NCBI GenBank assembly: GCA_018650445.1 | Contig: JABIFX010000005.1 | Span: forward strand, 1-44,517 | From: Fidelibacterota bacterium | GTDB taxonomy: Bacteria > Fidelibacterota > UBA8477 > JABMPR01 | Direction of reading: 5' to 3' | Length of the DNA stretch: 44,517 nucleotides | Shown here: positions 20,418 to 44,517 of the stretch, piece after piece | Layout of the letters: every line of letters starts with the position of its first letter | Position numbering within the stretch: the first letter of the stretch is position 1 | Notes under the pieces: generated by a model | What the model saw: only the letters and a program-made list of their open reading frames with translations | Told to the model about the DNA's origin: nothing | The model's database searches: none | Position numbers and translations under genes: made by a program

Positions 20418-23400
20418 ATGAAATATCGTCACTTGCTGACTGGGCTAGTCATATTCATAATGGCAATACAGCTCGTTTTTGCTGGAACCACTGGAAAAGT
20501 CTCCGGTGTCGTAACTGATGCTGCAACCGGCGAACCCCTTCCCGGTGTGAATGTCATCATACAGGGTACAAATTATGGAACTGCAACGGATCTCTCAGGT
20601 AATTTTTATATCCTGAATGTTCCCCCCGGTATCGTTTCCGTGGATGCTTCATTTATTGGTTACGCCAGAATGACAATCCAGGAAGTTCGTGTTGTTGTTG
20701 ATATGACAACAACCACAAATATTGCCATGCAGATCGAAGCCTTACAGGGGCAGAGTATTGTTGTTGTTGAAACGCGTCCCTTAGTTGATCAGAAATCCAC
20801 TAATGAGCGTCGTACCATTCGTAGTGAAGATATTGATAATCTACCAGTACGTGATGCCGACGAAATTGTTGCGCTCCAGACTGGTGCAGTAAAAGTTGGA
20901 AACAACTTGCATATCCGTGGTGGACGCCTTGAAGAAGTCGCTTACTATGTAGACGGTGTGTATCAAGTAAATGATTACAGTAGAGTGGCTCGGCCAAATG
21001 CAGCTGAAGTCTCAAGCCAGGCTCTGGAAGAGTTATCTTTTCAGGCTGGTGGATTTGATGCAGAATATGGATCAGCTACTGCTGGATTAATTAGCATGTC
21101 CACCAAAACTGGTGGCAGAAAATTGAATATCGCCGGTGAAATTGCTACCGATGAATTTTTAGATCGAAATGATCCCGGGATTCTGAACACGTACTCATAC
21201 GGACAAAATATTTACAATCTCTCAATAAATGGTCCAATTATGAAGGATATCTCATTCTATGCAAATATGGAATACCAATATAATTATGACAGGCGGAGAA
21301 CTTCTGGAGCACACCCTGAAGCCACTTATCTAGGTGATTTGGATTCTAATGGTATCAGATCATATGAAGACTATGAAGTTGTATCCAGGTTTGGACCTCT
21401 TCCATATAATTCTGAGACCAAATTATTGGGTACTGGTAATATTCTTTATGCGAAGAGAAATTTTCGCTTAAAAATTGGTGGAAATATTTCCCAGACCAAC
21501 TGGTATTCTTACGCAACGACGATCGGCTCATATGATAAAGCTGCTTTCGCAGGTGAGGCTATTCCATACTGGGAGAGTTTGACCAAGGCCGGCTATGCAC
21601 GAGCCACCTGGACAATAAATTCGAAAACCTTATGGGATTTTCAAATCTCTAGCTTCAATGATGGTTACAATACTGGTCATAAAAAGCATTGGGATGATTT
21701 TTTCTATTATGGCCTTAAAGAATTTCCTGTTGAGGATCTTGCTGCCCTTGAAGGCTTGAGTGATGCTGATCTTAGACAGATGCTTGGGAATGAATATGAA
21801 CCCATAAAATATATTATGGATAACCAGAGCGAATTTGAGGAAGTAGACGGTAACCTGGTATATCAACCTGAACTTCGTCAGAACGGAACGGATCCAACTA
21901 CTGATGGAGCCTACGCAGACTTTATGGCTCCCGGGACCATCTTTGGCTCTTTCGTAAAGAATCAAACAGGTTATCTGGGTATGAATACTAACCTTAAAAT
22001 GCAGCGTGGCGTACACGAGTTGAAGTTTGGTGGTGAGCTCAGACAATACCTGATTCGCTATTATCGCATAGGTTCCCCAGAACGATTAGCCTCCACCTTT
22101 TTTAACAATACACCACATAATCAGGCAGCCTTTGATACCCTGCTCCAAAGTGGTGATCTTTCTCTGGGCGATTATACTGATTACCAGGGATATATTGATA
22201 ACTATTGGTTCCAGGCTTACAAGAATGCTTATGCAGAAAATATGGGCTATACCATTGATGGAGCTTCATTAGTTGATACTGATTTGGGTGATGATCGCGA
22301 CGGACCTCGTCGTCCCACCGTTGGTGGTATCTATCTGCAGGACAAGATTGAGATGAGTGACCTCGTTATGAATCTTGGTCTGCGCTATGACTACATTGCA
22401 GCCAATAATTATAAATTCCGGGATCAAGCAAATATTGTTTTGGATGAAACAGGAGCAATTGCCGCTCAGGTATATATGGACCAAGATGGTGATTATACTA
22501 GTTATGAGCCAACAACGGATATTGATGGCAACCCAGTTGACAATGCTGGAGTCGCACAGCTTAACCCACGTGATGCTGTTCATCTGATTAGTCCCAGACT
22601 TGGACTGGCCTTTCCAGTAACTGACAGAACTGTTTTCCATGCTCAATATGGAAAATATGTCCAACAACCCCAGTTGAATCGGTTGTTCCTCAGCTATACC
22701 CGTTTTGCGGCGAATCTGAGTCAAGGGAATTATACTACTTCTGGAAACCCAGAACTGGATCCAGTCAAAACGACAGCATATGAAATTGGGTTCCAGCAAG
22801 CTCTTGGAGAAGCTGCCAGTATCGATATGACTGTTTTTTACAAACAGATGACAGGCTATGTTCAGATCAGAAACGTTCAGGACGCTTCACCTGTAGTATA
22901 TGCTAACTATGTCAATGGTGATTATGGAAGTATTAAAGGACTATCAGCTTCCTTCAATCTTAGACGTACAGGATACGTACAGGCAATGGTGAACTATACG
23001 CTTCAATATGCTGGTGGAACCGGATCAACCGGGGCTGGACAGTACAAGATTGCCTGGCAGTCTGGAAACTATCCATCATTTGTTAGCCCGCTGGATTTTG
23101 ATCAACGACATACGGGTTCCGTGAATGTTGATTTTAGAACCAAATCCCAGGATAGAATTCCAGAAGCAGGAGCAAATCTACTGTTTACCTTCGGAAGTGG
23201 TCGCCGTTATACACCGATGGCTGTTGCAAGTGCGGTTTTCCCCGGTACATCAGATACACCTGTCGCTGGGTTGAACTCTGGTGTTATGCCCTGGTATTAT
23301 TCTATGGATATGAAATTTGACAAGAACTTTCATGTTGGCATATTTAAGCTGAATACCTATTTGTGGGTTAAAAACGTCTTGGATCGTTCTAACGTTCGTG

Positions 23401-23582
23401 ACGTTGAGGATGGGACCGGCGAGCCAGATAATGATGGTTGGCTGACTACTGAGGCAGGTCAAATATGGCTAGCTGATGAGAACAATTCCGAGGAATTGTA
23501 CAGGCTGAGGATGGTTCATCCTTTCAATTATGAAAACCCAAGGACTTTCCTTTTGGGTGTCCGTTTCTTTATGGGCAACTAG
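20418..23582 (+). CDS. TonB-dependent receptor (Oar/SusC-like, CarboxypepD_reg domain)
   Basis: Outer-membrane receptor, 1,054 residues. The start is the ATG at 20418 because GGAGGA lies 7 bases upstream; an upstream TTG (20376) falls at the promoter and is unlikely. Order: signal peptide (LTGLVIFIMAIQLVFAG), carboxypeptidase-regulatory-like domain (KVSGVVTDAATGEPLPGVNV), a possible TonB box with SIVVVETRPLVD, plug (LHIRGGRLEEVAYYVDGV, GFDAEYGSATAGLISM), and a long barrel ending FLLGVRFFMGN with a terminal aromatic pattern. It is the first gene of an operon: the giant exported protein starts 14 bases downstream, then a PorV-like barrel and another exported protein. The arrangement suggests a receptor with dedicated surface partners. 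Ligand unknown. Confidence 0.93.
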   Translation: MKYRHLLTGLVIFIMAIQLVFAGTTGKVSGVVTDAATGEPLPGVNVIIQGTNYGTATDLSGNFYILNVPPGIVSVDASFIGYARMTIQEVRVVVDMTTTTNIAMQIEALQGQSIVVVETRPLVDQKSTNERRTIRSEDIDNLPVRDADEIVALQTGAVKVGNNLHIRGGRLEEVAYYVDGVYQVNDYSRVARPNAAEVSSQALEELSFQAGGFDAEYGSATAGLISMSTKTGGRKLNIAGEIATDEFLDRNDPGILNTYSYGQNIYNLSINGPIMKDISFYANMEYQYNYDRRRTSGAHPEATYLGDLDSNGIRSYEDYEVVSRFGPLPYNSETKLLGTGNILYAKRNFRLKIGGNISQTNWYSYATTIGSYDKAAFAGEAIPYWESLTKAGYARATWTINSKTLWDFQISSFNDGYNTGHKKHWDDFFYYGLKEFPVEDLAALEGLSDADLRQMLGNEYEPIKYIMDNQSEFEEVDGNLVYQPELRQNGTDPTTDGAYADFMAPGTIFGSFVKNQTGYLGMNTNLKMQRGVHELKFGGELRQYLIRYYRIGSPERLASTFFNNTPHNQAAFDTLLQSGDLSLGDYTDYQGYIDNYWFQAYKNAYAENMGYTIDGASLVDTDLGDDRDGPRRPTVGGIYLQDKIEMSDLVMNLGLRYDYIAANNYKFRDQANIVLDETGAIAAQVYMDQDGDYTSYEPTTDIDGNPVDNAGVAQLNPRDAVHLISPRLGLAFPVTDRTVFHAQYGKYVQQPQLNRLFLSYTRFAANLSQGNYTTSGNPELDPVKTTAYEIGFQQALGEAASIDMTVFYKQMTGYVQIRNVQDASPVVYANYVNGDYGSIKGLSASFNLRRTGYVQAMVNYTLQYAGGTGSTGAGQYKIAWQSGNYPSFVSPLDFDQRHTGSVNVDFRTKSQDRIPEAGANLLFTFGSGRRYTPMAVASAVFPGTSDTPVAGLNSGVMPWYYSMDMKFDKNFHVGIFKLNTYLWVKNVLDRSNVRDVEDGTGEPDNDGWLTTEAGQIWLADENNSEELYRLRMVHPFNYENPRTFLLGVRFFMGN

Positions 23583-23596
23583 GTAAAGGGGATAAT

Positions 23597-26500
23597 ATGA
23601 ATGCTGAAAGTAGATCTATGAAAAAATACATTGCACTGGTGTTAACAATCCTTTTCTTGGTCACCTCAATGAGTGCTGATGTGAGAAGCTTAGGGAATAG
23701 TTCAGGATTGACAAAAGCTAGCACACTTGAATTTATTCTTTATGATGCCAACCAGATTCGTTCGTGGGTCGGGAATAATGGACACATTGTTAGTCACATC
23801 CCCACTGGTAATTCTGGATTAGAATGGCCCTCCGGCTCTGGAAATGCTGCTGTATTTGCTTCCGGTCTCTGGGTGGCAGGTATGGTTGACGGTGAAATAA
23901 GATCAGCTGCTGCTGAATACACATCTGAATTTCAACCTGGAATTATTATTTATGATGAGGTCAATGGTGTCTCTTCTGGACCTGATTCTCCCAATGATGC
24001 ACGTTTCCAGGTTAGTTCTATCAACAAAACCGATAATTCTGATGATAGTTCTCCCAATTTTAACAGAGAGTTCGCCACCTGGCCATCGGCCGATGGTGCT
24101 CCAGCACACGATGGTGAGTATTTCACAGATGCCAATGATAATGGTGTCTGGGATGTCGGTGAAGAATATCTAGATTTTGATTTTGATGGTATGTACGACG
24201 AGCCCGATGGCGAGATGGTAAGTGGTGAAGATCCTCCACTGATGATTGGAGACCAGATGCATTGGTTTGTGATCAACGATGCCGAACCTAACACTCATAG
24301 CAATTTATGGTCAACCCAACCACTTGGGGTTGAAGTACAAACCACAATTTTTGGTTTTGACCGTAATGACCCTCTGGGGAACGTTATGTTTGTCAAATGG
24401 CTGGTGATCAATAAAAGTGGCGGTGATATCGATGACATGTATCTATCAATTTGGTCAGATGCAGATCTTGGAAACGCATCGGATGATTACGTTGGTTGTG
24501 ATACAGTGCTTTCAGTTGGCTATTACTATAATGGTGGTCAGACTGATCAAAATTATGGTTCAAGACCACCTGCAGTCGGTTATGATTTTTTCCAGGGACC
24601 CATTGTGCCCTCTGTTGGAGATACAGCACTGATCTCTGGAAGACAAATTCCAGATTTTAGGAATCTACCTATGACTTCATTCGTTGGCTACATCAACGGT
24701 GATGCAACTCTTGATGATCCTGAAACTGCTGATGAAGCCTACAATTACATGCAAGGTTTTTCAGCTGATGGCGATCCTTTTCACGAAAGACTTGATGATT
24801 CTCAACCAATTACAAGTTTTGTATGGCCAGGTGACCCCAATACCCGCAGTGGCTGGACAGAGTACGATGATTATCCACCCCGTGACATGCGTAGCTTGAT
24901 GAGCTCAGGACCCTTTAACATGTCCACCTGGATTGACGGTGACGGCGACGGCTTTCCTCAGGTTGGTGAACCTGGTGTACAGGAAATCGTATCTGCTATT
25001 ATCATCGCTGCCGGTACCAACAATACCAATGCCGTTGATGCCATGAAGTTTTTTGACCAATTTGCACAAGGTGCCTACGATGCACAATTTGTACTACCAA
25101 GTCCATTAGCACCTATAGTGGAGGTCAGTGAATTAGATGAACAAATTATACTTTCCTGGGCAGAGGATAGAGAAGAAGTAGAAGCATTCTCTGAGCTAGA
25201 ATACGCCTTTGAAGGTTATAACGTATTTCAGGGTGAATCAGAGAATGGTCCCTGGACACTGGTTGCGACATATGATGTTGTGAATAGTATCACCACCATT
25301 CTGGATAGAAATTTTAATCCAGAAAATGGTTTGATATTGGAAGGACCAGTACAGTTCGGAAATGATACTGGTATTGAAATCCTGATTGATTTACAACGAG
25401 ATTACGTTCGTGGTAATATTGATTTGGTCAACGGTCGCAAGTACTATTATTCCGTTTCATCATACGCATATAGTGAAACGAAAGCACCCAAAACGGTTGA
25501 AAGCTCCAAACGCCCGATAACGGTAAGACCTCATACACCTGCTTTAGGGTTAGTTCTAGAGGCTGCCACTGGAGACAGTATTTTATACAGCCACGTGGGT
25601 ATTGCTGAAGCATCCATTAGCGCTGAGGTATTTGATCCGCTGCAATTAACTGGTGAGACCTACGCTGTAGACTTTCTCATGGATTCCACCACTGAAATGG
25701 GCTATTGGATGTTTGGAAAAACAGATGCCAATGATGAGCTCATTGACTACGATGACCCCATAATCTTTTCTTCTGAGCTGGGATCATATGAATCAGATCT
25801 CATGGATGGATTTGTCCTCTCAGTCGCAGATGTTTCTTTTGACGCTCCAAGTTATAAGACTGCCTGGATGCAAACTGTTAATCAGGTCGGAACCCAATAT
25901 GAGACTTTGGAATTGCTTGCAATCTCACCGGGTGGTGTTGATTCACTAGCCTGGGCCGATGAAACCATGACTGACACCGTCCATCTAGATACGCTTTATG
26001 GAGAAGGTGCCTACTATGATGAGTTCGAAGTCAGGGAAGTGGGTCGACTTACCTATTTTGATCTGATCAGAGCGAACCAGCACGATGTTCTCATCCAGGG
26101 ATTTGCATCCAAATTTGGAGGCCAGGGTGGTGATCGTTTAGCTGATATTCCAGGTATTGGTGGAGGAAATGAAGATATCGAAACCCTTCAAGCTGATCTT
26201 GAAATACGTTTCACTGAAGCAGGTCAAAATGCTTCTCTCTACGCTGCTGCTGCTGGTTACGTACCCACACTCATAAATATCCCATACGAAATATGGGATA
26301 TAGAACGGAATATTCAACTTTGTGTTGGTATAAATGACAACAACAGGAGTGGTGGAAATCAGGATACGACCTTTGAGGATTGGGAAACCACTCTTGATCT
26401 GGACTGGGTTGTTGTTTTCTACCAGGATTATGCTGAGTTTGGAGATTCAACACATGTCCTGTTCAATAATCCCAATTCAGGATGGTGCTGGCAGTTTAAT

Positions 26501-27022
26501 TCTGCTTCCAAGTTTACTGTGGGAGATGCAGTGCAAATTACCTTCCTTAATCCTGTAAACCCTGGCTATGTGATCAGCCCCGCAGGGGAACTTTACGTAC
26601 CAGAAATTACCGGTGATAGATGGTTAATAAGACCAACAGTACTATCCGAAGCCACGGCTGATCAGAAAAAGGATCAGCTGGAAGAGGTAAACGTCTTTCC
26701 AAATCCCTACTTTGCTTTCAATGTTGAAGAGAGACAGCCTCTGGATAGATTTGTGACGTTCACTCATCTGCCTGCAGATGAAACTGTCGCAACAACCATT
26801 CGAATATATTCCTTGGGTGGTCATTTTGTGCGATCCATAGATCATAATGATGGCGTATCAGGATTCTCTGGTACTTCATTTGATCAATGGGATTTGACTA
26901 ATAACTCTGGCATTCCGGTGTCAAGTGGGATGTACATTGCACATATCCAGGTTGAAGGGGTTGGAGATAAAGTTCTAAAACTAGCTATTTTCCAACCTGA
27001 AGAACGCCTTGATGTTTATTAA
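23597..27022 (+). CDS. Giant exported protein with NPY-type C-terminal sorting domain (family A)
   Basis: Function unknown. 1,141 residues with a signal peptide (MKKYIALVLTILFLVTSMSA) and no lipobox cysteine. The start at 23597 has AAAGGGG at 23585-23591. Features: an N-terminal block with GHIVSHIPTGNSGLEWPSGS, Asp-rich calcium-loop-like motifs (DANDNGVWDVGEEYLDFDFD), MSSGPFN at 435, an FN3-like segment with FEGYNVFQGES, a conserved block VLIQGFAS...LADIPGIGGG, and a final ~105-residue domain starting FPNPY (NPY at 1036-1038) and ending KVLKLAIFQP, resembling Por/type IX C-terminal sorting domains. Strongly similar over its length to the protein at 30534-33824 and less so to 40906-44454. Its place between a TonB receptor and a PorV-like gene suggests surface export and partnership with the receptor. 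Confidence 0.88.
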   Translation: MNAESRSMKKYIALVLTILFLVTSMSADVRSLGNSSGLTKASTLEFILYDANQIRSWVGNNGHIVSHIPTGNSGLEWPSGSGNAAVFASGLWVAGMVDGEIRSAAAEYTSEFQPGIIIYDEVNGVSSGPDSPNDARFQVSSINKTDNSDDSSPNFNREFATWPSADGAPAHDGEYFTDANDNGVWDVGEEYLDFDFDGMYDEPDGEMVSGEDPPLMIGDQMHWFVINDAEPNTHSNLWSTQPLGVEVQTTIFGFDRNDPLGNVMFVKWLVINKSGGDIDDMYLSIWSDADLGNASDDYVGCDTVLSVGYYYNGGQTDQNYGSRPPAVGYDFFQGPIVPSVGDTALISGRQIPDFRNLPMTSFVGYINGDATLDDPETADEAYNYMQGFSADGDPFHERLDDSQPITSFVWPGDPNTRSGWTEYDDYPPRDMRSLMSSGPFNMSTWIDGDGDGFPQVGEPGVQEIVSAIIIAAGTNNTNAVDAMKFFDQFAQGAYDAQFVLPSPLAPIVEVSELDEQIILSWAEDREEVEAFSELEYAFEGYNVFQGESENGPWTLVATYDVVNSITTILDRNFNPENGLILEGPVQFGNDTGIEILIDLQRDYVRGNIDLVNGRKYYYSVSSYAYSETKAPKTVESSKRPITVRPHTPALGLVLEAATGDSILYSHVGIAEASISAEVFDPLQLTGETYAVDFLMDSTTEMGYWMFGKTDANDELIDYDDPIIFSSELGSYESDLMDGFVLSVADVSFDAPSYKTAWMQTVNQVGTQYETLELLAISPGGVDSLAWADETMTDTVHLDTLYGEGAYYDEFEVREVGRLTYFDLIRANQHDVLIQGFASKFGGQGGDRLADIPGIGGGNEDIETLQADLEIRFTEAGQNASLYAAAAGYVPTLINIPYEIWDIERNIQLCVGINDNNRSGGNQDTTFEDWETTLDLDWVVVFYQDYAEFGDSTHVLFNNPNSGWCWQFNSASKFTVGDAVQITFLNPVNPGYVISPAGELYVPEITGDRWLIRPTVLSEATADQKKDQLEEVNVFPNPYFAFNVEERQPLDRFVTFTHLPADETVATTIRIYSLGGHFVRSIDHNDGVSGFSGTSFDQWDLTNNSGIPVSSGMYIAHIQVEGVGDKVLKLAIFQPEERLDVY

Positions 27023-27050
27023 GATGAGCGCAGAGCAGAGGATGACTATT

Positions 27051-28112
27051 ATGAATAGAAGAACAAGAATATCAAAAGTACTGATGTTCCTCCTGGTTGC
27101 TACAATCATGATGAGCATTGCATTCGCAGGAAGTGATAAACGCCGGGGTACAGCTGGCGCACAAGAACTATTAATTCCTGTTGGTTCAGTAGGTACGGCT
27201 ATGGGAGGTTCCTATAGTGCCGTAATTTCTGGAATAGAAGCAGCTTACTGGAACCCAGCTGGCGTAGCCCTGCTGGAAGGAAATGGTGAAGCTATTTTTT
27301 CACATATGAATTATATAGCTGATATCAATGTTGAGTATGCTGGTATAGCTAGCCGAGTGGGATCACTGGGTGTTCTGGGTGCGACCTTGAAAACCATCGA
27401 TTTCGGTGAAATACCAGTAACAACAACTGAGCGAACTGATGGGACGGGTGAATTTTATTCACCGCGTTATATGACAATTGGTTTACTGTTTTCCAAAGTT
27501 ATGACAGACCGCATTAATTTCGGTATGAAACTTAATTTAATCTCCGAGCAAATAATGCGTGTAAGCGCTTCAGGTGTTGCCTTAAATGCTGGTGTACAAT
27601 ATCGTACCTCTGCAGATGGCTTCAAGATGGGTGTGGCCCTGAGAAATCTGGGAATAGATATGCTCTTCACTGGTGCAGATCTTGAACAAACCATAACACC
27701 TCCAGGTACAGAGCCTGGAACACGCTCTGAACCCTGGCGTATTCCACTGTCTTCTTTTGAGTTACCCACACAGTTAGAAATTGCCGTTGCCTACGGATTA
27801 TTGAACACTGGCGGGACAAAGGTCACAGTAGGTGGCGCCTTTCTGAATGATAACTTTTCACTTGACCAGTACACTGTTGGTGCTGAAATTGAACTCATGG
27901 ACATGGTCTATATACGAGGATCCTATGCTGTAGCCGAAGATCCTGAGACCCATGAATTCTATTCTGGCAATGAGGAGTTTCTCTGGAGCAGTGGAATAGG
28001 CATGGGCTTGAAACTCAATATGGGTTCAACAAATATTAAAATTGATTATGCCATGAGACCAACTTATTTATTCTCAACCAATTCCTGGCTCAGTTTTAGA
28101 GTAGGATTCTAA
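27051..28112 (+). CDS. PorV/PorQ-family outer-membrane barrel protein
   Basis: Predicted outer-membrane beta-barrel of the PorV/UPF0164 (FadL-like) type, 353 residues from the ATG at 27051 (AGAGGA upstream). Starts at 27009 or 27024 would overlap the previous gene. After a signal peptide (LMFLLVATIMMSIAFAG) the mature start has the family pattern GTAGAQELLIPVGSVGTAMG, then SGIEAAYWNPAGVALLEG, followed by alternating beta strands and an aromatic end (NSWLSFRVGF). In type IX secretion PorV carries cargo with C-terminal sorting domains from the SprA translocon to the surface attachment complex. Lying directly after such a cargo gene and before another fits that job; whether this copy is the general PorV or a dedicated one is not visible. 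Confidence 0.88.
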   Translation: MNRRTRISKVLMFLLVATIMMSIAFAGSDKRRGTAGAQELLIPVGSVGTAMGGSYSAVISGIEAAYWNPAGVALLEGNGEAIFSHMNYIADINVEYAGIASRVGSLGVLGATLKTIDFGEIPVTTTERTDGTGEFYSPRYMTIGLLFSKVMTDRINFGMKLNLISEQIMRVSASGVALNAGVQYRTSADGFKMGVALRNLGIDMLFTGADLEQTITPPGTEPGTRSEPWRIPLSSFELPTQLEIAVAYGLLNTGGTKVTVGGAFLNDNFSLDQYTVGAEIELMDMVYIRGSYAVAEDPETHEFYSGNEEFLWSSGIGMGLKLNMGSTNIKIDYAMRPTYLFSTNSWLSFRVGF

Positions 28113-33500: not shown

Positions 33501-33824
33501 GGCACAGCCTATGATGAAGATGCGCTGGATATGATTCGGGTTTTTCCCAATCCTTATTTCGGCTATCAATCTGAACAATCAAGCTTTTCAGAGCCTTTTA
33601 TAACTTTTAGCAATTTGCCCGAGAAGGAATGCACATTGAGGATCTATAATCTGGGTGGTCAACTGGTAAAACGCTTTGATCACGAGATTGGTACCTATGA
33701 ATATTGGGATCTACTCAACCAGCATGGCTGGCCTGTTGCCAGTGGCGTCTATATCGTGCACATCGAAGTACCCGACCTGGGGAATAAAGTTTTAAAGGTG
33801 GCCATTCTTCAACCCAAAAGATAG
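30534..33824 (+). CDS. Giant exported protein with NPY-type C-terminal sorting domain, paralogue (family A)
   Basis: Function unknown. 1,096 residues, a close paralogue of the protein at 23597-27022: shared blocks include SHIPTGDAGAEWPAGSG, DGAPAHDGEYFTD, SDQRYGLRPPAVGYD, MSSGPFD (residue 425), DFEGYNIFQGESVIGPW, VLIQGFASNFG, RLADIPGIGGG and SGWCWQFNASSKFSIGD. The Asp-rich loops (DLNSNGLWDTGESFEDFDRN) could bind calcium. The C-terminal domain starts FPNPYF (NPY at 1006-1008) and ends KVLKVAILQPKR. The start appears to be TTG at 30534, with GGGAGGGG just upstream; the signal peptide is IVVIICLCSVGLS. It stands alone, without an adjacent receptor or PorV gene. A run of eight G (31334-31341) lies inside the coding sequence. 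Confidence 0.87.
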   Translation: MQIFETTITRYIVVIICLCSVGLSKDDNPPSLAKPNTVEFELFSSNNIRNWIGNQGHLSSHIPTGDAGAEWPAGSGKTAVFASGIWVLGQVNGEIRSAFAMYTSEWTPGIIPYDTQTRLPTSDVPLNTTDHQIYYIQQENSSDPAVENYNREYASWPVSDGAPAHDGEYFTDLNSNGLWDTGESFEDFDRNGSYDPPDGLLVTGEDPPLFSGDTQAWYVMNDWDTTGHNNLWGTTPLGIETQVLIYTRSDDPIYENVQFYKTIVINKGGEQIDGCYYGYWSDVDLGDANDDAGGCDSSLSLAYLYNGNSSDQRYGLRPPAVGYDMLQGPLVSSPGETTVYNGNTYADKNTIDMTAFILITKHNPFPDPENVQEAYNMAQGLHLAGLPIIDPWGNITTFPVSGDPVTDNGWTALNSFPVGDRRMFMSSGPFDLPAWDDINDNGRADFGEPGVQIIHSALIIVDGANNLDAITNLKYVSRYIQDDFDNGFETYSMEKPPLSSSAYDQEIIINWYEGADEYEALYFGPYDFEGYNIFQGESVIGPWTKLATFDLDNGVGIIVDQYIDTHGLLQSGAVQFGDDTSLEHIISIQEDVLNDGEPLVNNKQYYFALSAYAYGEDASPKTISSEKHIISIRPHQTFESAGVRDTLEVEHIGNSEVKLTVDVLDPSQLTGLNYKLGFEYDSTLALGRWHVTRRAVSFEDTAIQSEWIEGFSSNRYIKPLAFHIDGFEMTMDDISFQAPKFNHSWLQTVNLIQDTTWIVSYPAISPGGVDSLMIVEGDTISLRDFFGPLEHHWDTYAFFIREEGTQTWFDIPFEENHSVLIQGFASNFGARGSDRLADIPGIGGGSTNLEFLQSDLEIRFTEQGQLASLYDHEVAYVPTIVHVPFEVWDIKRNIQLCIGINDNNHSGGIQDRTTADWEHTLDLDWVILFDRDYEIYGSEVDSLFRSPYSGWCWQFNASSKFSIGDVVTIHFLNPVKAGVDVYKWSTDVIGTAYDEDALDMIRVFPNPYFGYQSEQSSFSEPFITFSNLPEKECTLRIYNLGGQLVKRFDHEIGTYEYWDLLNQHGWPVASGVYIVHIEVPDLGNKVLKVAILQPKR

Positions 33825-34828: not shown

Positions 34829-34829
34829 C

Positions 34830-37427: not shown

Positions 37428-37464
37428 TTACTCTGAACTGATAAAGAGGTCATCTGAGCGTGTG

Positions 37465-37500
37465 AAGGGATGTTTTAAGCAAATTAAAACATCCCTTTTC
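37465..37500 (+). terminator. Rho-independent terminator of the Asp-box gene
   Basis: A perfect 14-bp stem, AAGGGATGTTTTAA (37465-37478) and TTAAAACATCCCTT (37484-37497), with a 5-base loop and a short T tract. Confidence 0.85.
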
Positions 37501-37612
37501 TCCGATCAAGATGAGGTCGCTGCTTAGCTGGCCTCTTTTGGTTTTTGTGGCTCTACCATGCTGAGCCAATAAAATGCATGTAAAGATAGCGTCAATGCTG
37601 CAGGGAGATTCC

Positions 37613-40600
37613 ATGAGAAGTGTTTGGTTAAAATTCAGTCTGGTTTTGTTAAGTGTTACCATGGCCTGGTCCGCTACCGTAGGAACCATCTCAGGACGTA
37701 TTACAGATGGCAATACAGGTGAACCCATTATTGGTGCCCAGGTGATGATTGCGGCATTGGGTTTGGGCGGCTCTACAGACTTCGAAGGTGAATTTTACAT
37801 TCAAAATGTACCAGTGGGTGTTCATAGTGTGCAAGTCTGGATGATTGGGTATGCCAGGGTAACCTATAGTGATGTGGGCGTGGTTATGGATCAGACAACA
37901 CCCCTCAACGTTTCTCTTGATGAAGAAGTCATAGCTGGCCAGGAAGTCACCGTTATTGCGGATCGACCGCTGGTTGAAAAAGATGTGACTGTAAAGAAAC
38001 TTGTTCGCACGGCTGAAGAAATTCAAAATTTGCCTGCTCGTGATTTAACTGAGATGCTCACCCTCCAGAGTGGTGTCATTCAGATTAAGAGCTCCGAAAG
38101 TGGTATTCCTGGTTTTGCTGATCGCGGGATTGAGCAAATTCACGTCCGTGGTGGCCGCTCAGGTGAGATTGGCTACACCATTGATGGTATGTATATTGAA
38201 AATCCTATATACGGTGGAGGCTTTGGTAGAGGCACAAGACTTGGAACCCATGCTGTCCAGGATCTTATTTCTCAAACCGGTGTTTTTAATGCTGAGTATG
38301 GCGATGCCATGTCTCAAATCGTAAATATTATTACTGCCACTGGTGGTGACCATTATGAAGGCACCTTTGAATGGAAGGGCAGCAATCTTGGACCCCTGAG
38401 TTCAGAACAGGATCGTCTCCGAGACTATAAAGAATTTGCCGGATCTTTTTCCGGTCCAGTCATTCCTGGAATGAGCAATCTTACTTTTCATGTAGCCGCT
38501 GATTACTCCAATAGTTCTTACGCTGTATATAACTTTGATGATAAAGTGTATATCGAAGGAGATCCAGGTAATAGAATTAACCAGGCCAATAAAGTGCATT
38601 GGTTAGATCGTTATGCTGGCTGGAGAGCGTTTGGCTATGATAAAACCTACGATATCTTCACCAAGTTGCATTGGAAAATCGACTCATACAAATTTCTGAA
38701 TTTTTCGCACTGGATGGTGGATTCAAAATTCAAGACTTTTGGTCCCTGGAATCAATTCTATGAAGAGAACAAGAATGTGAATCACAAGTTCTCCGAAAGA
38801 TTCCATTTGGAATTTCGTCACCAGCTTAACGAAAAAACTTACTACACCATCAGCGCATCTCGCTTTACTCAGGAGATGGAAATTAATGTTGAAAACGGGG
38901 ATATGGACGGCGATGGCTATCCTGACTGGGTAGAGTTTAAAATCGGTACAGAAGCACGTGGTCTCCACAACGGAGTTGACTACAGGGGAGATTGTGATAT
39001 TCCTTATGAGAATGACCAAAAATTTGGTCCAGGGGTTTCTATTGCCAATGATGAAAATGAAACCATCTATTATGAATCCTGGGGACCAGGTTGCTTGAGA
39101 ACCATGATCACCTATTATTGGCGCGGGCCTGGCCATATTGGTAGTGCCAGCTATGATTCAACCCAATTGCATATCGTCCTGGAACATGGTGAGCAAATCG
39201 CCATTGGACCTTACGATAGGATCAAGATCGAAGATATTTTCCTGGAAGAAAATTTTGATGATAACGGAACTTTGATTTCCTCTCGGAGACTCTCAAATGG
39301 TGATCTAATTGATCCATTGGATTCACTTGAATATTCAGATAAAGATGGAAATATCCATCTCTGGCATCTTGGCGATGAATTAGATGAGCATCTTGCTGAA
39401 GGTCAGTATACACCTTTCCAATACATGTACTATCCTGATTCCACCTATGAGCAATACTCTTCACCAGCAGGTATGAGTGCTGCTGAATTTGCCGCCATGC
39501 GAGATTCACTATACTATATCATGTATTATGAGTATGGTTCTGGTGGGGCAGATCGCTATCGTCATCACACCAAGAGTGTAACTGATGAGGTAAAGTTTGA
39601 TATCACCAGCCGCGTGAATAAGCATCATCAACTGCGAGGGGGTGTAGACCTCAAACGACATCTCATCACCTTTGATGAAACCCAATTACCCTGGTTGAAC
39701 CCACCTTATGGTGAAACCTATGGTTTGCCTGACTCCATCGAGCGTGATGGATTTCTGGATGAATTTATCTATGGGACTGGAGAGAAATCACCGATTGAGA
39801 TCGGAGCCTATATCCAGGATAAAATCGAATATCCCTGGATGACCATTAACGCAGGTATCCGCTTTGATATCCAGAACTCTCTAGATAGTTCCTGGGCAGA
39901 TCCTCGTGAAAAGACATCTGGGTCAGTACCTACAGAATGGAATGTCCTGTGGTCACCTCGATTGAGTATTTCACACGTGATTACTGATAAAGCGACATTT
40001 ACTTTTGGTTATGGTCGTTATTACCAGAATTTGACCTATCGGAATATTTATCTAAATAATGATAATGATTTGACTACGGCACTCCCCATTGTGGGGAATA
40101 GCCATGTTCAAGCCCAAGGTGTAACCGCCTACGAGTTTGGTTTGAACTGGGAGTTTGTGGAATTTTGGAAACTGGGTGTTGTTGGCTGGTCCAAAGACTA
40201 TTCTGATCTTGGATCCACTGAACGTGTTCAAGCCTTCCCTTATAGTTATTCAGTGGTTGTGAATTATGACTATGGTTCAGCACGAGGTTTGGATTTACGT
40301 CTCATAAAACGTGGTGGTTCAGCCTGGTCAACAGACATTCAATACACACTTTCGCGAGCTACTGCCAACCGCGCTGATGCATGGCAGGGTTATCGATCTT
40401 CCGATACGCCTGAATCTATGCCTAAGAAAGAGGTATTGATGGCTTACGACCGTACCCACAACCTGACCATGACAGGTGGCTATCAATTTAATAAGAAGAA
40501 TTCACCTCGGATATTCGGAAGATATCCTTTCAACAAGGCTACAGTACATGTGACCCTGGTGGGGATATCAGGTTCGCCTTACACGCCATTTGATATCAAC

Positions 40601-40900
40601 CTGAATCGTAATGGGGCCACAAATTCTGAGCGTATGCCCTGGTTTATTGAGACAAATATGGCCATCAGGAAAACCATCAATTTTGGTGGGCTAAATTTGT
40701 CTGCTGGTCTCATTATTCGTAATCTGCTAAATCGAGAAAATATCGTCGATATTTATGAGGAAACGGGAAGTCCTACAGATCCTGGTCGTAATGCAACCAG
40801 AGCCATCGAAAACGGAAGCAGTTCCCTGACTTTCTATGATAGGCCTTATTATTATTCAGCACCCCGTCAGATTGATCTGACCGCTAAAGTGAATTTCTAG
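37613..40900 (+). CDS. TonB-dependent receptor (Oar/SusC-like), second cassette
   Basis: Outer-membrane receptor, 1,095 residues from the ATG at 37613, which has AGGGAGA upstream and opens a clean signal peptide (WLKFSLVLLSVTMAWSA). An ATG at 37574 would add 13 non-conserved residues. Order: carboxypeptidase-regulatory-like domain (GTISGRITDGNTGEPIIGAQ), possible TonB box with VTVIADRPLVEK, plug (IHVRGGRSGEIGYTIDGMYI, GVFNAEYGDAMSQIVNII) and barrel ending in QIDLTAKVNF. A calcium-loop-like DMDGDGYPDW and two cysteines (in RGDCDIPY and GPGCLRT) lie in an extracellular-loop region. Same family as the receptor at 20418 and, like it, followed at once (5 bases) by a giant exported protein. Confidence 0.93.
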   Translation: MRSVWLKFSLVLLSVTMAWSATVGTISGRITDGNTGEPIIGAQVMIAALGLGGSTDFEGEFYIQNVPVGVHSVQVWMIGYARVTYSDVGVVMDQTTPLNVSLDEEVIAGQEVTVIADRPLVEKDVTVKKLVRTAEEIQNLPARDLTEMLTLQSGVIQIKSSESGIPGFADRGIEQIHVRGGRSGEIGYTIDGMYIENPIYGGGFGRGTRLGTHAVQDLISQTGVFNAEYGDAMSQIVNIITATGGDHYEGTFEWKGSNLGPLSSEQDRLRDYKEFAGSFSGPVIPGMSNLTFHVAADYSNSSYAVYNFDDKVYIEGDPGNRINQANKVHWLDRYAGWRAFGYDKTYDIFTKLHWKIDSYKFLNFSHWMVDSKFKTFGPWNQFYEENKNVNHKFSERFHLEFRHQLNEKTYYTISASRFTQEMEINVENGDMDGDGYPDWVEFKIGTEARGLHNGVDYRGDCDIPYENDQKFGPGVSIANDENETIYYESWGPGCLRTMITYYWRGPGHIGSASYDSTQLHIVLEHGEQIAIGPYDRIKIEDIFLEENFDDNGTLISSRRLSNGDLIDPLDSLEYSDKDGNIHLWHLGDELDEHLAEGQYTPFQYMYYPDSTYEQYSSPAGMSAAEFAAMRDSLYYIMYYEYGSGGADRYRHHTKSVTDEVKFDITSRVNKHHQLRGGVDLKRHLITFDETQLPWLNPPYGETYGLPDSIERDGFLDEFIYGTGEKSPIEIGAYIQDKIEYPWMTINAGIRFDIQNSLDSSWADPREKTSGSVPTEWNVLWSPRLSISHVITDKATFTFGYGRYYQNLTYRNIYLNNDNDLTTALPIVGNSHVQAQGVTAYEFGLNWEFVEFWKLGVVGWSKDYSDLGSTERVQAFPYSYSVVVNYDYGSARGLDLRLIKRGGSAWSTDIQYTLSRATANRADAWQGYRSSDTPESMPKKEVLMAYDRTHNLTMTGGYQFNKKNSPRIFGRYPFNKATVHVTLVGISGSPYTPFDINLNRNGATNSERMPWFIETNMAIRKTINFGGLNLSAGLIIRNLLNRENIVDIYEETGSPTDPGRNATRAIENGSSSLTFYDRPYYYSAPRQIDLTAKVNF

Positions 40901-40905
40901 GTGAT

Positions 40906-43900
40906 ATGATGAAAAAAGTAATTAATCCATTGTCTCCTTTGTCCTATTTGTTTTCAATATTTGTGTTGTTCGTTTTTCTTCCAATCGGGCTTGATGCAGC
41001 TGAACCAAATATTAGACCCGCTCCTGGTTTGGGCAAGACATCTGCCTTTGACCCGGTTCTCAATCGTGCCCGAGGCTACATGAGCAAGGGAGAACTTCAG
41101 TTTGCCACTCATAATTATGGTAGCTTTATTGAATTTGATGATAAGAGCTCACCTTCAGGACTGTATAAGGGTTATCAGTATATTTCTGATGTATCCTTTA
41201 TTCTCGGTGTTCCGGGTAGAGACTCAACAGGTGCTATAACTCCATGGGCTTTACGCCCACCCTATGTCCCAGGACTTGAACACTTTTCAACTGACACCCT
41301 GGTTTATTGGGGATCAACAGTATCTGAATCCTGGTTTGATCGTGTACAGGATAAAAAACAGGTCGATTGGGAATCTGTAGAATCACATTATGGCTATCTC
41401 CACAGTGGTGATGTTATGGCTGGAGAAATTTATGGTGGCATCTATACTGATAGTGGCGATCCCTATCCATTGTTGGCATCCAGTGATATCCCGGACTCAT
41501 GGCCCATTCGCATCAACGATGATACCGGTCTGGAAGAGCGAACCTGGCCAGGTGATTGGGCCGTAGCGACTGAAGGTCCCACCAAGGGCCAGGAAATTAT
41601 TGGTCGACATATTGGTGACCAGGATATCTATATGGAATTTGATGACAGGTTGGCTACACGTGACGAAGACATGACCCAGGGTTACGCCATGGGGATGCAT
41701 GTCACCGTGAACGCCCACTCCTATGGTCGCTCCTATGCTGAAGATATCGCCTTCTTCACAGTTGAAATCGTGAATGAATCCTACAAAGGGTTTCCCATGG
41801 ACACCAATGGTGATAATATTGCCGATGTGGTTTGGGTACCTACAACCGCAGATGATGGAACTGTCACCTATGAATTAATGGATCGCAACTTTATCGGCGA
41901 CCCTGATATACATGGATTTGATTATGAAGGTGTTTATGGTGGATTCTATTTTGATGTGGATTCATATTCGCGTCTTGAGAACGGCCAATACACAGGTCGT
42001 ACTAATGATGATGATATGATGGCCTTTGATACCACCTATGATATGGCATTTATCTGGGATTGGGATGACCGCAGTTCATCAGCAACCAATCTCGCCTATT
42101 CAGCCCTGAAACTGCTGGACACACCTCTGGCTTCAGAGAATCTTGATATTGATGGAGACGGTTTTATTGATATTCAGCAAGGTCAGGCATTGGGTCTTAC
42201 AGACTGGCATTGGTTTGATTGGTACAAACGTCCTGGCGTATTAAAAGCTGAGGATGGTGGCCCAAGTTGCACCGATGGCTATGCAGGAGCTGGTGGTTGC
42301 CCGGGTTCTATTGACAAAGAAAATATAATGTTTGCCCTGATGGCAGGCGATACCTCCTATGTCGGCCTCGAAAATCGCAATTATAAAGATTGGGAATGGC
42401 GCGGCATCGCCGGTAATACTCCCAATCCTTTGAATAGCTCTTACAGCGACTGGTATTTCCATCCAAGTATTGGGGGAGCACTCAATCCTCATTTTGATTC
42501 CCTGGAAGGCTTACTAAATGAATACCCGGATGGTTTGGACTGTGTGTTTATGATGTCCGCCGGTCCCTTTAATCTGGCAGCAGGTGATACCACCCATTTT
42601 TCATTTGCAGTGATCATGGGTGATCCACCAAGCAATACGGAAACCTTTGATACACCTCCAGATCTTGCCAAGAATGCAGAGATGGCTCAAATCATGTACG
42701 ATTTGAAATATCAAGGCTTTTCACCCCCAGATGCTCCCACAGTTTCTGCTGTAGCAGATGATGGACGAGTCACTCTTTACTGGGATTCAAAAGCTGAAAC
42801 TTCAAAAGATATTGTGACCGGAATTGAAGACTTCGAGGGCTACAAAATTTACCGATCTACAGATGGTGGTTCAACCTGGGGTAACCCTCATAATGATGTT
42901 ATTTATAACACGAATGGACAGGCAGTGGGCTGGACGCCGCTGGCTCAGTTTGATTTGACAGCCGAAGAAGATGAAGATCTGTATGGCCTGGAATATGCCG
43001 GTCCCGACCCAGTAGCACCCTGGTTTAATCTGGGAGAGAATACGGGTTTGGAACATCGTTATGTAGATAATGACGTACTCAATGGGGTGACGTACTCATA
43101 CTCAGTGGTTGCCTATGATATCGGTATGGATACGCTCCAGAATTCTTATACCAATCCAACAGGTGAATGGGATCCACTGGAGTCTCTTGAAAACTTTAGA
43201 GGAAACAGCCCCTTCCTGCCACAATTTGTCAATGTTACTCCTGACGCACGTCCATCCAACGCTCCAGAATCCTGGGGGCTGGATCTGGCACCTTGGACAG
43301 TTGGTACAGGTGAGGTAGAGGTGATTCCTACCAATCCAGCGGAAGTAGAAGTGAACACAAATACCTACTTTATCACGATTGATGCGGAACCGGACTGTTA
43401 TCCTCCGAATACAGATTGTAACAATCCATATTATCACTTGAATCCAACATACACCGTGGTTGATAGTGCAACTGGAGATACTGTTCTCACTGAATTGGAA
43501 ATAGGTACATCCACCATGTTCTCCGAAGTCTGGGGGGGGTTTCAGTTTTATCTGGAAAACTCGCCAGATCCATCCGTAGATACCGTTTACTGGCAGAACA
43601 AAGGCAGCGATGAGGCTCCACAGTACAATATTCAGATGGGTTTCAACACACATCCGTTTGCTTGTGATTATGAGATTCGTTGGGATTGGGAAAATCCAAA
43701 TGATGATATGATTATGTTCCCTAATACAAATATGCCCTTTAGAATAATGAACACCAGCTTTGGTGAAGACTTGAACAATGATGGTCTCCTTGACGAAGGG
43801 GAAGACATAAATAACAACAACGTCTTAGATCCATATCGCGAGGTAATGTTGTTTGTATTTAGTGCGGGAATTCCTGAGACATCTCCTGATCCAAATTATC

Positions 43901-44454
43901 CTAGATTCAGATCAAATGAAAAGATATCCTTTATTGAGAAATATGTAGAGGGTTATGATTCCAGTGCAGTCAATACCCAAACCTGGAATATTATTATGAG
44001 CTGGGATACGACGAGGACCTTCTCTGGCAACCCAACTATCAGGCATGCTGAGACTGGTGATGTGACTCATTTGAGCATAGATAAACCATATGAAGATGGA
44101 GATATGTTCACTTTCCGGGCTGCGTCAGTTACAGAAATGAGTGAAGTAACGCAATCAATCCTGGATAAGGTGATGGTGGTTCCAAATCCATATATCGTAA
44201 CTGCCGACTGGGAAACTGATGTGAACCACAAGAGTCTGCATTTTACACATCTGCCCGATGAATGCGTGATTAAGATATTTACGCTGACAGGGGAGTTGGT
44301 GTATACCATCTTGCACAATGACATTTTCTCAGGTCAGGAGGAATGGAATCTCAGATCAATGAATCGGCAAGAGGTGGCTCCAGGCTTATATGTCTTTGTT
44401 GTTGAAACACCAAACCATGAAAAACAAGTCGGCAAATTTGCCGTGATCAGATAA
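40906..44454 (+). CDS. Giant exported protein with NPY-type C-terminal sorting domain, second cassette (family A, divergent)
   Basis: Function unknown. 1,182 residues with a signal peptide (LFSIFVLFVFLPIGLDA). A more distant relative of the proteins at 23597 and 30534: it shares MMSAGPFN (residue 549 onward), an FN3-like segment with DFEGYKIYRSTDGGSTW, and a C-terminal domain starting VPNPY (NPY at 1094-1096) and ending KQVGKFAVIR. Asp-rich calcium-loop-like motifs occur at DTNGDNIADVV, DIDGDGFIDI and LNNDGLLDEGEDINNNNVLD. Cysteine pairs (SCTDGYAGAGGC, DCYPPNTDC) could form disulfides. Starts at 40906 or 40909, 5 bases after the receptor stop. A run of eight G (43532-43539) is inside the coding sequence. 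Confidence 0.87.
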   Translation: MMKKVINPLSPLSYLFSIFVLFVFLPIGLDAAEPNIRPAPGLGKTSAFDPVLNRARGYMSKGELQFATHNYGSFIEFDDKSSPSGLYKGYQYISDVSFILGVPGRDSTGAITPWALRPPYVPGLEHFSTDTLVYWGSTVSESWFDRVQDKKQVDWESVESHYGYLHSGDVMAGEIYGGIYTDSGDPYPLLASSDIPDSWPIRINDDTGLEERTWPGDWAVATEGPTKGQEIIGRHIGDQDIYMEFDDRLATRDEDMTQGYAMGMHVTVNAHSYGRSYAEDIAFFTVEIVNESYKGFPMDTNGDNIADVVWVPTTADDGTVTYELMDRNFIGDPDIHGFDYEGVYGGFYFDVDSYSRLENGQYTGRTNDDDMMAFDTTYDMAFIWDWDDRSSSATNLAYSALKLLDTPLASENLDIDGDGFIDIQQGQALGLTDWHWFDWYKRPGVLKAEDGGPSCTDGYAGAGGCPGSIDKENIMFALMAGDTSYVGLENRNYKDWEWRGIAGNTPNPLNSSYSDWYFHPSIGGALNPHFDSLEGLLNEYPDGLDCVFMMSAGPFNLAAGDTTHFSFAVIMGDPPSNTETFDTPPDLAKNAEMAQIMYDLKYQGFSPPDAPTVSAVADDGRVTLYWDSKAETSKDIVTGIEDFEGYKIYRSTDGGSTWGNPHNDVIYNTNGQAVGWTPLAQFDLTAEEDEDLYGLEYAGPDPVAPWFNLGENTGLEHRYVDNDVLNGVTYSYSVVAYDIGMDTLQNSYTNPTGEWDPLESLENFRGNSPFLPQFVNVTPDARPSNAPESWGLDLAPWTVGTGEVEVIPTNPAEVEVNTNTYFITIDAEPDCYPPNTDCNNPYYHLNPTYTVVDSATGDTVLTELEIGTSTMFSEVWGGFQFYLENSPDPSVDTVYWQNKGSDEAPQYNIQMGFNTHPFACDYEIRWDWENPNDDMIMFPNTNMPFRIMNTSFGEDLNNDGLLDEGEDINNNNVLDPYREVMLFVFSAGIPETSPDPNYPRFRSNEKISFIEKYVEGYDSSAVNTQTWNIIMSWDTTRTFSGNPTIRHAETGDVTHLSIDKPYEDGDMFTFRAASVTEMSEVTQSILDKVMVVPNPYIVTADWETDVNHKSLHFTHLPDECVIKIFTLTGELVYTILHNDIFSGQEEWNLRSMNRQEVAPGLYVFVVETPNHEKQVGKFAVIR

Positions 44455-44467
44455 GGAGGGTATGATG

Positions 44468-44517
44468 ATGAATTCAAATGTTTTATACGCTCCTGCAAGG
44501 ACTGCAAAAATGAAAAA
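44468..44517 (+). CDS. Start of a further gene, cut by window end (unknown product)
   Basis: A strong AAGGAGGG (44453-44460) precedes three consecutive in-frame ATG codons (44462, 44465, 44468). The last has the best spacing. About 17 codons are visible (MNSNVLYAPARTAKMKK), too few to identify. By analogy with the first cassette the product may be a PorV-like barrel. Confidence 0.55.
   Translation, partial: MNSNVLYAPARTAKMK

What the first reader, a model, noticed from the sequence alone, without database searches (positions are those of the whole stretch)
20418..44517. Repeated module: TonB receptor, giant exported partner, PorV-like barrel
Twice in the window a SusC/Oar-like receptor is followed within 5-14 bases by a >1,100-residue exported protein of one family (MSxGPF, FEGYxxF/Y, C-terminal NPY domain). 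The first copy continues with a PorV-like barrel; the second runs into a new gene with a strong ribosome-binding site at the window end. SusC-SusD pairs use a lipoprotein partner. Here the partner has no lipobox and carries a type IX-like sorting domain, so it may be a SusD analogue delivered by a different route, or a cargo that needs the receptor (Oar-type receptors have been linked to export of such cargo). Seen: gene order, domains, spacing. Inference: the system.
Basis: partly seen in the sequence, partly recalled or inferred. Interest (0 to 1): 0.8.

Follow-up and report, generated by a model that had tools for sequence, protein, structure and literature searches.

The report
TonB receptor with T9SS-docked surface partner
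A repeated three-gene module pairs an outer-membrane importer with a giant surface protein that appears to be exported by the type IX secretion system and held beside the importer by its own dedicated barrel protein, a possible alternative to the well-known SusC-SusD nutrient pairs.

Summary
The window belongs to a Candidatus Neomarinimicrobiota MAG (relatives named). Its contig ends at 44517, but that end overlaps another contig of the same genome by 133 exact bases; the next gene is a 434-aa PorV-family protein, so module 2 is complete.

The order receptor-partner-PorV recurs. In the own genome 13 of 28 receptors found by my HMM and not at a contig edge have the partner next, and 13 of 14 PorV_fam genes over cut-off lie in such neighbourhoods. 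It is complete in 17 of 20 partner-centred loci, 16 of 20 PorV-centred loci and 12 of 12 loci of other FCB MAGs where all three positions are visible.

Partners carry a longer C-terminal domain than ordinary T9SS cargo; its only significant PDB sequence relatives are PorZ and PorU, whose CTDs stay on and which PorQ and PorV anchor. SprA and PorU are encoded; no SusD_RagB match in this genome.

Best reading: T9SS exports the partner, a dedicated PorV/PorQ-like barrel holds its uncleaved CTD, and it serves the neighbouring receptor. These steps are inference, the last one most.

The parts
20418..23582 (+). Module 1 TonB-dependent receptor (CarboxypepD_reg + Plug + barrel)
   Evidence: Pfam PF13715, PF07715, PF00593 over cut-off; start from the ORF translation
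23597..27022 (+). Module 1 partner (1141 aa): signal-like N-terminus, beta-rich body, FEGY central segment, long PorZ/PorU-like CTD
   Evidence: No Pfam family over cut-off; CTD profile; AF2 model pLDDT 82.7; Foldseek first hit PorZ 5m11
27024..28112 (+). Module 1 PorV/PorQ-family barrel (true start may be 27051, by the start of relatives such as L091)
   Evidence: NF033709 127.7 bits; AF2 pLDDT 81.8, Foldseek first hit PorV 8gl6_F, E 6e-13
28155..30362 (+). Ordinary T9SS cargo (short CTD, NPFNP type)
   Evidence: TIGR04183 47.4 bits; motif-to-end length 83
30534..33824 (+). Second module-1-type partner paralog without its own receptor or PorV
   Evidence: 45% identity to the first partner; long CTD, 92
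35499..37427 (+). Ordinary T9SS cargo just before module 2
   Evidence: TIGR04183 38 bits; CTD length 78
37574..40900 (+). Module 2 TonB-dependent receptor
   Evidence: PF13620, PF13715, PF07715 over cut-off
40906..44454 (+). Module 2 partner (1182 aa), distant relative of the module 1 partner
   Evidence: BLASTP to partner 1; CTD matches the PorZ model (30.8 bits)
44462..44517 (+). First 56 bases of the module 2 PorV-family gene (434 aa, continues on contig C271 of the same genome)
   Evidence: 133-base exact overlap with L195; NF033709 150.8 bits; PorV directly after the partner in relatives L093, L094, L096, L097 and L098

Best explanation
Each module encodes one outer-membrane assembly. 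(1) The partner crosses the inner membrane by Sec and the outer membrane by the SprA type IX translocon (inferred from the CTD class and the presence of SprA). (2) Its long CTD is not cleaved by the PorU sortase but stays bound to the PorV/PorQ-like barrel encoded next to it, as PorU does on PorV and PorZ on PorQ in Porphyromonas gingivalis (inferred from CTD homology, length and gene linkage). (3) So held at the surface, the partner body works with the TonB-dependent receptor encoded just upstream, as the ligand-binding or lid subunit that SusD provides for SusC (inferred from conserved gene order and parallel divergence; the weakest step). (4) Different modules carry different bodies and so presumably take different ligands. 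Ligand unknown.
For: Gene order in loci from 19 families of the phylum and in other FCB MAGs. Third gene of module 2 found in the same genome. CTD length 88-107 in 13 of 13 own-genome module partners, one of them on a near-duplicate contig. Receptor directly upstream of 47 of 54 long-CTD and 1 of 40 short-CTD proteins (corrected). A profile of 16 long CTDs finds only PorZ (6e-6) and PorU (6e-5) in the PDB below E 0.05, while a profile of 30 short CTDs ranks FlgD first and PorU sixth. Foldseek on the partner model: PorZ rank 1, PorU rank 4. PorV-like model: PorV ranks 1 and 2, ahead of FadL. The barrels of modules 1 and 2 score best on PorQ among the equivalog models. SprA 723.5 bits, PorU 691 bits, a separate canonical-like PorV at C184. 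No SusD_RagB match in 23 of 23 genomes of the own order. Within one genome (11 modules): CTD-PorV r 0.50 p 0.017, receptor-CTD r 0.56 p 0.002, receptor-PorV r 0.46 p 0.015; over 59 modules r 0.85-0.91, shuffles at most 0.22. In G036, body relatives without a receptor carry the short CTD (L278, L279); by HMM class so does L233.
Against: No physical interaction was tested. Body-PorV correlation within one genome is not significant (r 0.27, p 0.10) and the first 300 receptor residues do not track CTD or PorV. The 59-module correlation includes orthologs, so species history inflates it. The CTD contrast is one of degree: the PorU model matches the short set better (30 of 30, best 6.9e-13) than the long set (12 of 16, best 1.5e-5), the best PorZ E-values of the two sets are alike (9.2e-10 and 1.1e-9), and the short-CTD profile also finds PorU and PorZ. 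Exceptions: L123 has a partner followed by a non-PorV open frame; L129 has a second partner without a receptor before it; 6 of 54 long-CTD proteins have neither neighbour, including the window's own 30534-33824; L193 has receptor-PorV with the partner-like gene three genes upstream; L207 has a receptor followed by a short-CTD protein. PorU is encoded, so cleavage of the partner CTD is not excluded; partners in G045 and G098 marginally pass the ordinary TIGR04183 tail. SusD was tested with one Pfam model only, and 6 of 40 genomes have it.
Confidence: 0.62

Rival explanations
1. The partner is a T9SS-displayed surface enzyme, binding protein or adhesin held by its own PorV-like barrel; the receptor is co-transcribed because it imports a product, with no receptor-partner complex.
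For: Same CTD and PorV evidence as the main reading; tandem partner copies without extra receptors (window 30534-33824; L091/L092 in G012; L129); the body gives weak Foldseek matches to carbohydrate-active enzymes.
Against: A receptor directly upstream of 47 of 54 long-CTD genes and 1 of 40 short-CTD genes; receptor distances correlate with partner body (r 0.45, p 0.012 in one genome).
Confidence: 0.22
2. Oar-type export: the TonB-dependent receptor itself exports the partner, as Oar is required for PopC secretion in Myxococcus xanthus.
For: Receptor adjacency; the Oar-PopC precedent (PMC6434023, abstract and outline seen).
Against: Partners carry a T9SS-class CTD, the genome encodes SprA and PorU, a PorV-family gene accompanies the partner, and short-CTD cargos have a receptor directly upstream in only 1 of 40 cases.
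Confidence: 0.07
3. The PorV-like barrel is a FadL-type channel for hydrophobic compounds and the module takes up hydrophobic substrates with the receptor.
For: FadL, TodX and TbuX are among the next structural matches, TodX and TbuX also weak sequence matches; Pfam gives the module 1 barrel only sub-threshold Toluene_X and UPF0164 matches and no PorV (PF19572) match.
Against: PorV is closer by sequence profile (7e-18 against 2e-4) and fold (6e-13 against 2e-8); NF033709 passes its cut-off; the partner CTD is of the type that PorQ and PorV hold.
Confidence: 0.06

Closest known systems
SusC-SusD nutrient uptake pairs (Bacteroidota)
   Same: TonB-dependent receptor with a CarboxypepD_reg domain, immediately followed by a dedicated exported partner; many paralogous pairs per genome (SusC-SusD side recalled)
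   Different: Receptors fall far below the SusC/RagA cut-off; lipobox-like match in 1 of 46 partners, no SusD_RagB match in the own order, and a third gene, a PorV-family barrel
PorZ-PorQ and PorU-PorV attachment sub-complexes of the P. gingivalis T9SS
   Same: Surface protein with a long CTD anchored by a PorV/PorQ barrel (PMC5562754 passages; CTDs not removed, PMC11285876 passages); partner CTDs find these in the PDB and the barrels of modules 1 and 2 score best on PorQ among equivalogs
   Different: There one set serves the secretion system; here about a dozen sets in one genome, each linked to a TonB receptor; NCBIfam matches partners to PorZ and PorU in the C-terminal part only
Type B CTD proteins with cognate PorP/SprF shuttles (Flavobacterium johnsoniae, P. 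gingivalis PG1035)
   Same: Dedicated barrel often genetically linked to its own T9SS substrate, used for secretion and surface anchoring (PMC12618676 abstract and passages; PMC9143113 abstract and outline)
   Different: PorP/SprF barrels and type B CTDs; PorE-like partner instead of a TonB receptor; 'TonB' occurs 0 times in the main text of PMC12618676
Oar-PopC (Myxococcus xanthus)
   Same: A TonB-dependent transporter functionally tied to an exported protein (PMC6434023 abstract)
   Different: The abstract mentions no T9SS sorting domain or PorV
BamG-BamH in Bacteroidota BAM complexes
   Same: FadL-family barrel holding a surface protein beside another barrel (PMC12611786 and PMC12578637 passages)
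   Different: BamH is a surface lipoprotein and the neighbour is BamA, not a TonB receptor

Membership tests
SusC/RagA receptor family | NCBIfam TIGR04056 over curated cut-off 368.25 | tested here: not met
   54.5 and 54.7 bits, N-terminal match only
SusD family | SusD domain in the partner | tested here: not met
   No SusD model among the Pfam matches of the window partners; PF07980 absent from the own genome; other SusD models not searched genome-wide
SusD family | Lipobox / lipid anchor | tested here: not met
   Regex match in 1 of 46 partners, orthologs included; none in the window's two
TonB-dependent receptors | Plug domain and 22-strand barrel | tested here: met
   Plug over cut-off in both; barrel model over cut-off in the first only
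PorV/PorQ family | NF033709 over cut-off 90 and PorV fold | tested here: met
   127.7 and 150.8 bits; Foldseek PorV first for module 1
Pfam PorV (PF19572) | Match to the Pfam model | tested here: not met
   Module 1 barrel: no PF19572 match up to E 0.1
PorV or PorQ equivalog | NF033710 (250) or NF033711 (220) over cut-off | tested here: not met
   PorQ 84.9 and 75.1, PorV 34.8 and 44.9 bits
T9SS type A cargo | TIGR04183 tail over 23 bits | tested here: not met
   Window partners: 18.0, 17.9 for the paralog and no match for partner 2; marginally reached by partners in G045 and G098
PorU/PorZ-like non-cleaved CTD class | Homology to PorZ/PorU CTD and greater length | tested here: met
   PorZ model matches 16 of 16 CTDs; PDB profile hits PorZ and PorU only; lengths 88-107. 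Difference of degree: short CTDs match these models too
PorU/PorZ-like non-cleaved CTD class | CTD remains attached on the surface protein | not testable with these tools
   Needs proteomics
Type IX secretion system | SprA translocon, PorU, PorV in the genome | tested here: met
   SprA 723.5 bits, PorU 691 bits; canonical-like PorV 204.7 bits, under the 250 cut-off
Type IX secretion system | PorK/L/M/N motor and ring genes | not tested
   Not searched

The most novel reading that the evidence does not exclude
A separate architecture of TonB-dependent uptake: instead of a lipid-anchored SusD lid, the receptor works with a large T9SS-exported protein parked by an uncleaved CTD on a dedicated PorV/PorQ-type barrel. 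It is a main way these FCB bacteria equip their receptors, with module identity written in the CTD-barrel pair and ligand identity in the swappable body.
Probability: 0.5. Interest if true: 0.9.

Novelty: new variant of a known kind. Interest (0 to 1): 0.77.

Why it matters
If right, T9SS is not only a secretion and gliding system but also builds nutrient-uptake complexes, and many annotated 'PorV/PorQ family' genes would be dedicated anchors rather than secretion components. It would explain how FCB lineages with few or no SusD proteins, including the marine SAR406 lineage, equip TonB receptors, and it offers a simple sequence lead (CTD length and class) to separate cargo that stays on its barrel from cargo that is processed.

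Tried and rejected
Oar-type export and a FadL-type channel were considered and disfavoured (see rivals). A SusD-like fold of the partner was looked for: Foldseek against the PDB gave PorZ, PorU and various beta-rich proteins, and no SusD is named in the 50 rows shown of 722 matches; the viral library gave only low-TM matches, of no use. PorZ as a whole-protein homolog was rejected: NCBIfam matches are to the C-terminal part only. The idea that T9SS is kept solely for this module in streamlined genomes was rejected: SprA is kept in 6 of 6 family-f7 genomes, but the module 1 partner had no match in 2 of the 6 (G072, G090). Co-folding of receptor with partner could not be done. The second fold job went to the PorV protein because relatives of partner 2 had come only from the genome search, which the stated rule for fold jobs does not name. 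Literature: ten searches were counted; PorV + Marinimicrobia, type IX + TonB receptor + Ignavibacteri + gene cluster and SprF + type B + T9SS + outer membrane complex gave no paper; (15 of 432 listed) show none that describes the triple in the title or the start of the abstract. Only open-licence papers are held, so this is no proof that it is unpublished.
Full report
WHAT IS THERE. The window is contig C91 (44,517 bases) of a MAG of 3.9 Mb, 273 contigs, 86.75% complete, 4.56% contaminated. Close relatives are named Candidatus Neomarinimicrobiota. Module 1 is a receptor (20418-23582), a partner (23597-27022) and a PorV/PorQ-family barrel (27024-28112); then come an ordinary T9SS cargo and a second partner paralog (30534-33824, 45% identical to the first). 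Module 2 is a receptor (37574-40900) and a partner (40906-44454), then the window ends. Families.

THE MISSING GENE. The last 133 bases of the window are identical to the start of reversed contig C271 (L195) of the same genome, where the next gene reads as a 434-aa protein that scores 150.8 bits on PorV_fam, cut-off 90. In five relatives (L093, L094, L096, L097, L098) the same order is seen.

HOW COMMON: OWN GENOME. ORFs were called mechanically and sorted with home-built profile HMMs seeded with window proteins. The HMM found 31 receptor ORFs in the own-genome loci, fragments and one similar contig pair (C107/C233) included; 3 are at a contig edge. Of the other 28, 13 are directly followed by a partner, 1 (L193) directly by a PorV gene, and 14 by neither. 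Two of the 30 Plug hits of the genome were missed by the HMM: C84 (no partner or PorV beside it, L202) and C234 (L207, followed by a short-CTD protein); counting them, 13 of 30. Of 14 PorV_fam genes over cut-off, 13 lie in receptor neighbourhoods (the C271 one by the overlap); the remaining one (C184) is the closest to canonical PorV among those I scanned (204.7 bits, cut-off 250).

HOW COMMON: ELSEWHERE. Partner-centred sample in the phylum, 20 loci picked by me from the listed hits, 19 families (f7 twice): 17 complete, 2 (L238, L240) cut by a contig end after receptor and partner, 1 without (L233). PorV-centred sample, one locus from each of 20 genomes, picked by me from the listed top part, leaving out hits that looked canonical by score and size, so not random: 16 complete (L263 and L269 with one extra gene before PorV), 2 (L258, L272) with partner and a contig end before the receptor, 1 uninformative (L268), 1 without (L274; the top hit of a reduced genome, likely its canonical PorV, by inference). 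Loci titled Bacteroidota, Bacteroidetes, Ignavibacteriae or Chloroherpetonaceae: 12 of 12 hold a complete triple where all three positions are visible (some receptors cut at their 5' end); in L129 the partner that matched the query is a second one downstream of the triple. L131 (titled Chloroflexi) and L136 show a partner cut at the contig start, then PorV. Exceptions within the phylum: L123 (a non-PorV open frame after the partner) and L132 (short-type CTD, no receptor). PorV_fam occurs 2-23 times per genome in 40 of 40 genomes (E at most 1e-10).

THE SORTING DOMAIN IS NOT THE ORDINARY ONE. From the NP motif to the C-terminus, module partners of the own genome have 88-107 residues (13 of 13), while 30 of the other 36 CTD proteins have 78-84; the six exceptions are partner paralogs (window 30534, L088 6333, L193 310) or proteins beside or near PorV-like genes (L192, L197, L198). 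Over four locus sets (own genome without L191), 96 CTD proteins with both neighbours in view or without a motif were found, 94 with a motif. Long (86 or more, 54): 42 have a receptor directly upstream and PorV directly downstream, 5 receptor only, 1 PorV only, 6 neither. Short (40): 1 PorV only, 39 neither. I then scanned the upstream proteins of the short set with Pfam: 35 lie on the same strand, and 1 of them has a Plug domain (L207), so receptor upstream is 47 of 54 against 1 of 40. Short-CTD cargo often follows the PorV gene of a module, for example window 28155; the count looked for PorV downstream only. Three of the six long 'neither' cases sit within a module cluster (window 30534, L088 6333, L235 12088).

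WHAT THE LONG CTD RESEMBLES. A profile of 16 long CTDs (13 module partners and 3 paralogs) against PDB sequences finds PorZ 5m11 (6.3e-6) and PorU 6za2 (5.6e-5), then nothing below 0.06. A profile of 30 short CTDs finds FlgD proteins first, then among others PorU (2.7e-4), the T9SS tails of 8glk and 8glj, PorZ (1.1e-3) and gingipain. NCBIfam at E up to 0.1: PorZ model in 16 of 16 long and 14 of 30 short CTDs, with similar best values (1.1e-9 and 9.2e-10); PorU model in 12 of 16 long and 30 of 30 short (best 1.5e-5 and 6.9e-13), which goes against a PorU-like label; M36 tail in 29 of 30 short and not listed for the long; TIGR04183 in 30 of 30 short and 15 of 16 long, weaker in the long (best 2.6e-5 against 6e-15). 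So the long CTD is best called PorZ-like, and the contrast is one of degree. Published background: PorU, PorZ and PorA CTDs are not removed, and PorZ and PorU CTDs are longer (96 and 108 residues) than processed ones (67-88) (PMC11285876, passages); PorU and PorZ are anchored by PorV and PorQ (PMC5562754, passages including the abstract). The barrels of modules 1 and 2 score highest on PorQ among the equivalog models, under its cut-off. The body can occur with either tail: receptor-less body relatives in G036 (L278, L279) have 77-residue tails, while the G036 module partners in L276, L277 and L280 have 94-105.

STRUCTURES. Partner 1: AF2 with 31 sequences, mean pLDDT 82.7, pTM 0.63. Foldseek first hit PorZ (E 6.7e-6), rank 4 PorU, but with TM scores of 0.07-0.14, so only a part is shared, presumably the CTD; dextran dextrinase and GH94-type enzymes match with probability 0.99-1.00 and query TM 0.14-0.17, which is a hint only. 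PorV-like protein: AF2 with 22 sequences, pLDDT 81.8, pTM 0.73; first hit PorV in the RemA-CTD-bound translocon (E 6.3e-13, TM 0.65), then PorV 6h3i, then FadL proteins.

SHARED HISTORY. Among 11 modules of the own genome (paralogs, so species history is removed), Mantel tests give receptor-CTD r 0.56 p 0.002, CTD-PorV r 0.50 p 0.017, receptor-PorV r 0.46 p 0.015, receptor-body r 0.45 p 0.012, body-PorV r 0.27 p 0.10; the first 300 residues of the receptor do not track CTD (p 0.17) or PorV (p 0.36). Over 59 modules (of 72 before removal of near-duplicates) r is 0.85-0.91, highest shuffle 0.22, with species history included; partial correlations CTD-PorV given receptor 0.52, CTD-PorV given body 0.42, receptor-CTD given PorV 0.19, receptor-body given CTD 0.64, receptor-body given PorV 0.48, body-PorV given CTD 0.54. 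This fits CTD-barrel and body-receptor contacts but does not prove them, and the body-PorV value shows the split is not clean.

MACHINERY. SprA: 18 of 20 genomes over cut-off, own genome included. PorU: 17 of 20, own 691 bits. SusD_RagB: 0 of 23 in the own order, 6 of 40 overall, with Bacteroides ihuae ringing among the controls; other SusD models were not tried. PorK/L/M/N were not tested.

MECHANISM AND STATUS. Shown: gene order, co-occurrence, CTD class, barrel family, presence of SprA and PorU. Inferred: T9SS export, CTD retention, docking on the adjacent barrel, partnership with the receptor, any ligand. Two known pieces (a surface protein held on a PorQ/PorV-type barrel; a TonB receptor with a surface partner) appear here combined in one repeated module. 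In the searches named I found no description of the triple; the library holds open-licence papers only. I therefore call it a new variant of a known kind, with a fair chance of being a distinct class of uptake system.

Noticed in passing
L091 14782 onward and L092 1-14732 (genome G012): A run of six module-1-type partner paralogs without receptors between module 1 and module 2; the own genome has one in that place (30534-33824). Perhaps interchangeable partners for one receptor.
   Followed up: partly
L081 6678-9827: The module partner carries a CxxCH (haem-type) motif just after its signal-like region; the only one among 59 partners.
   Followed up: partly
L190 4786-11125 and L191 2042-7538: Contigs C107 and C233 carry very similar modules, both with 933-aa partners; strain mixture or a recent duplication in the MAG.
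   Followed up: no
L192 5677-6525, L196 8888-9805, L197 5640-6665, L198 13109-14020: PorV-like genes under the PorV_fam cut-off without a receptor nearby, directly or one gene after a CTD protein; possible receptor-less versions of the anchor.
   Followed up: no
L207 5306-8770: A Plug-domain receptor followed by a short-CTD protein, without PorV; the one such pair seen.
   Followed up: partly
Genomes G027, G045, G051, G072, G090, G098: Reduced genomes (0.8-1.0 Mb) keep SprA in 6 of 6 with only 2-4 TIGR04183 matches each; PorU did not reach the cut-off in G027 (the other five were not tested).
   Followed up: partly
L263 7988-9379, L269 6596-7990, L083 8404-9414: Extra genes of about 463 or 336 aa between partner and PorV; the 336-aa one matches no NCBIfam family up to E 0.01.
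   Followed up: no
L189 2243-9574: Canonical-like PorV next to a protein matching an inactivated M6 T9SS-dependent metalloprotease model (under its cut-off) and one with a TolB-propeller match; genes of similar size and order appear in G036 (L281 1837-9125).
   Followed up: no
window 16866-19978: Module 1 follows genes that look like trigger factor, clpP and clpX (by eye, not searched); genes of similar sizes precede it in L091, L104 and L105.
   Followed up: no
window 34157-35366: Two overlapping genes with Gate (nucleoside recognition) domains lie between the modules; gene pairs of similar sizes recur there in relatives.
   Followed up: no
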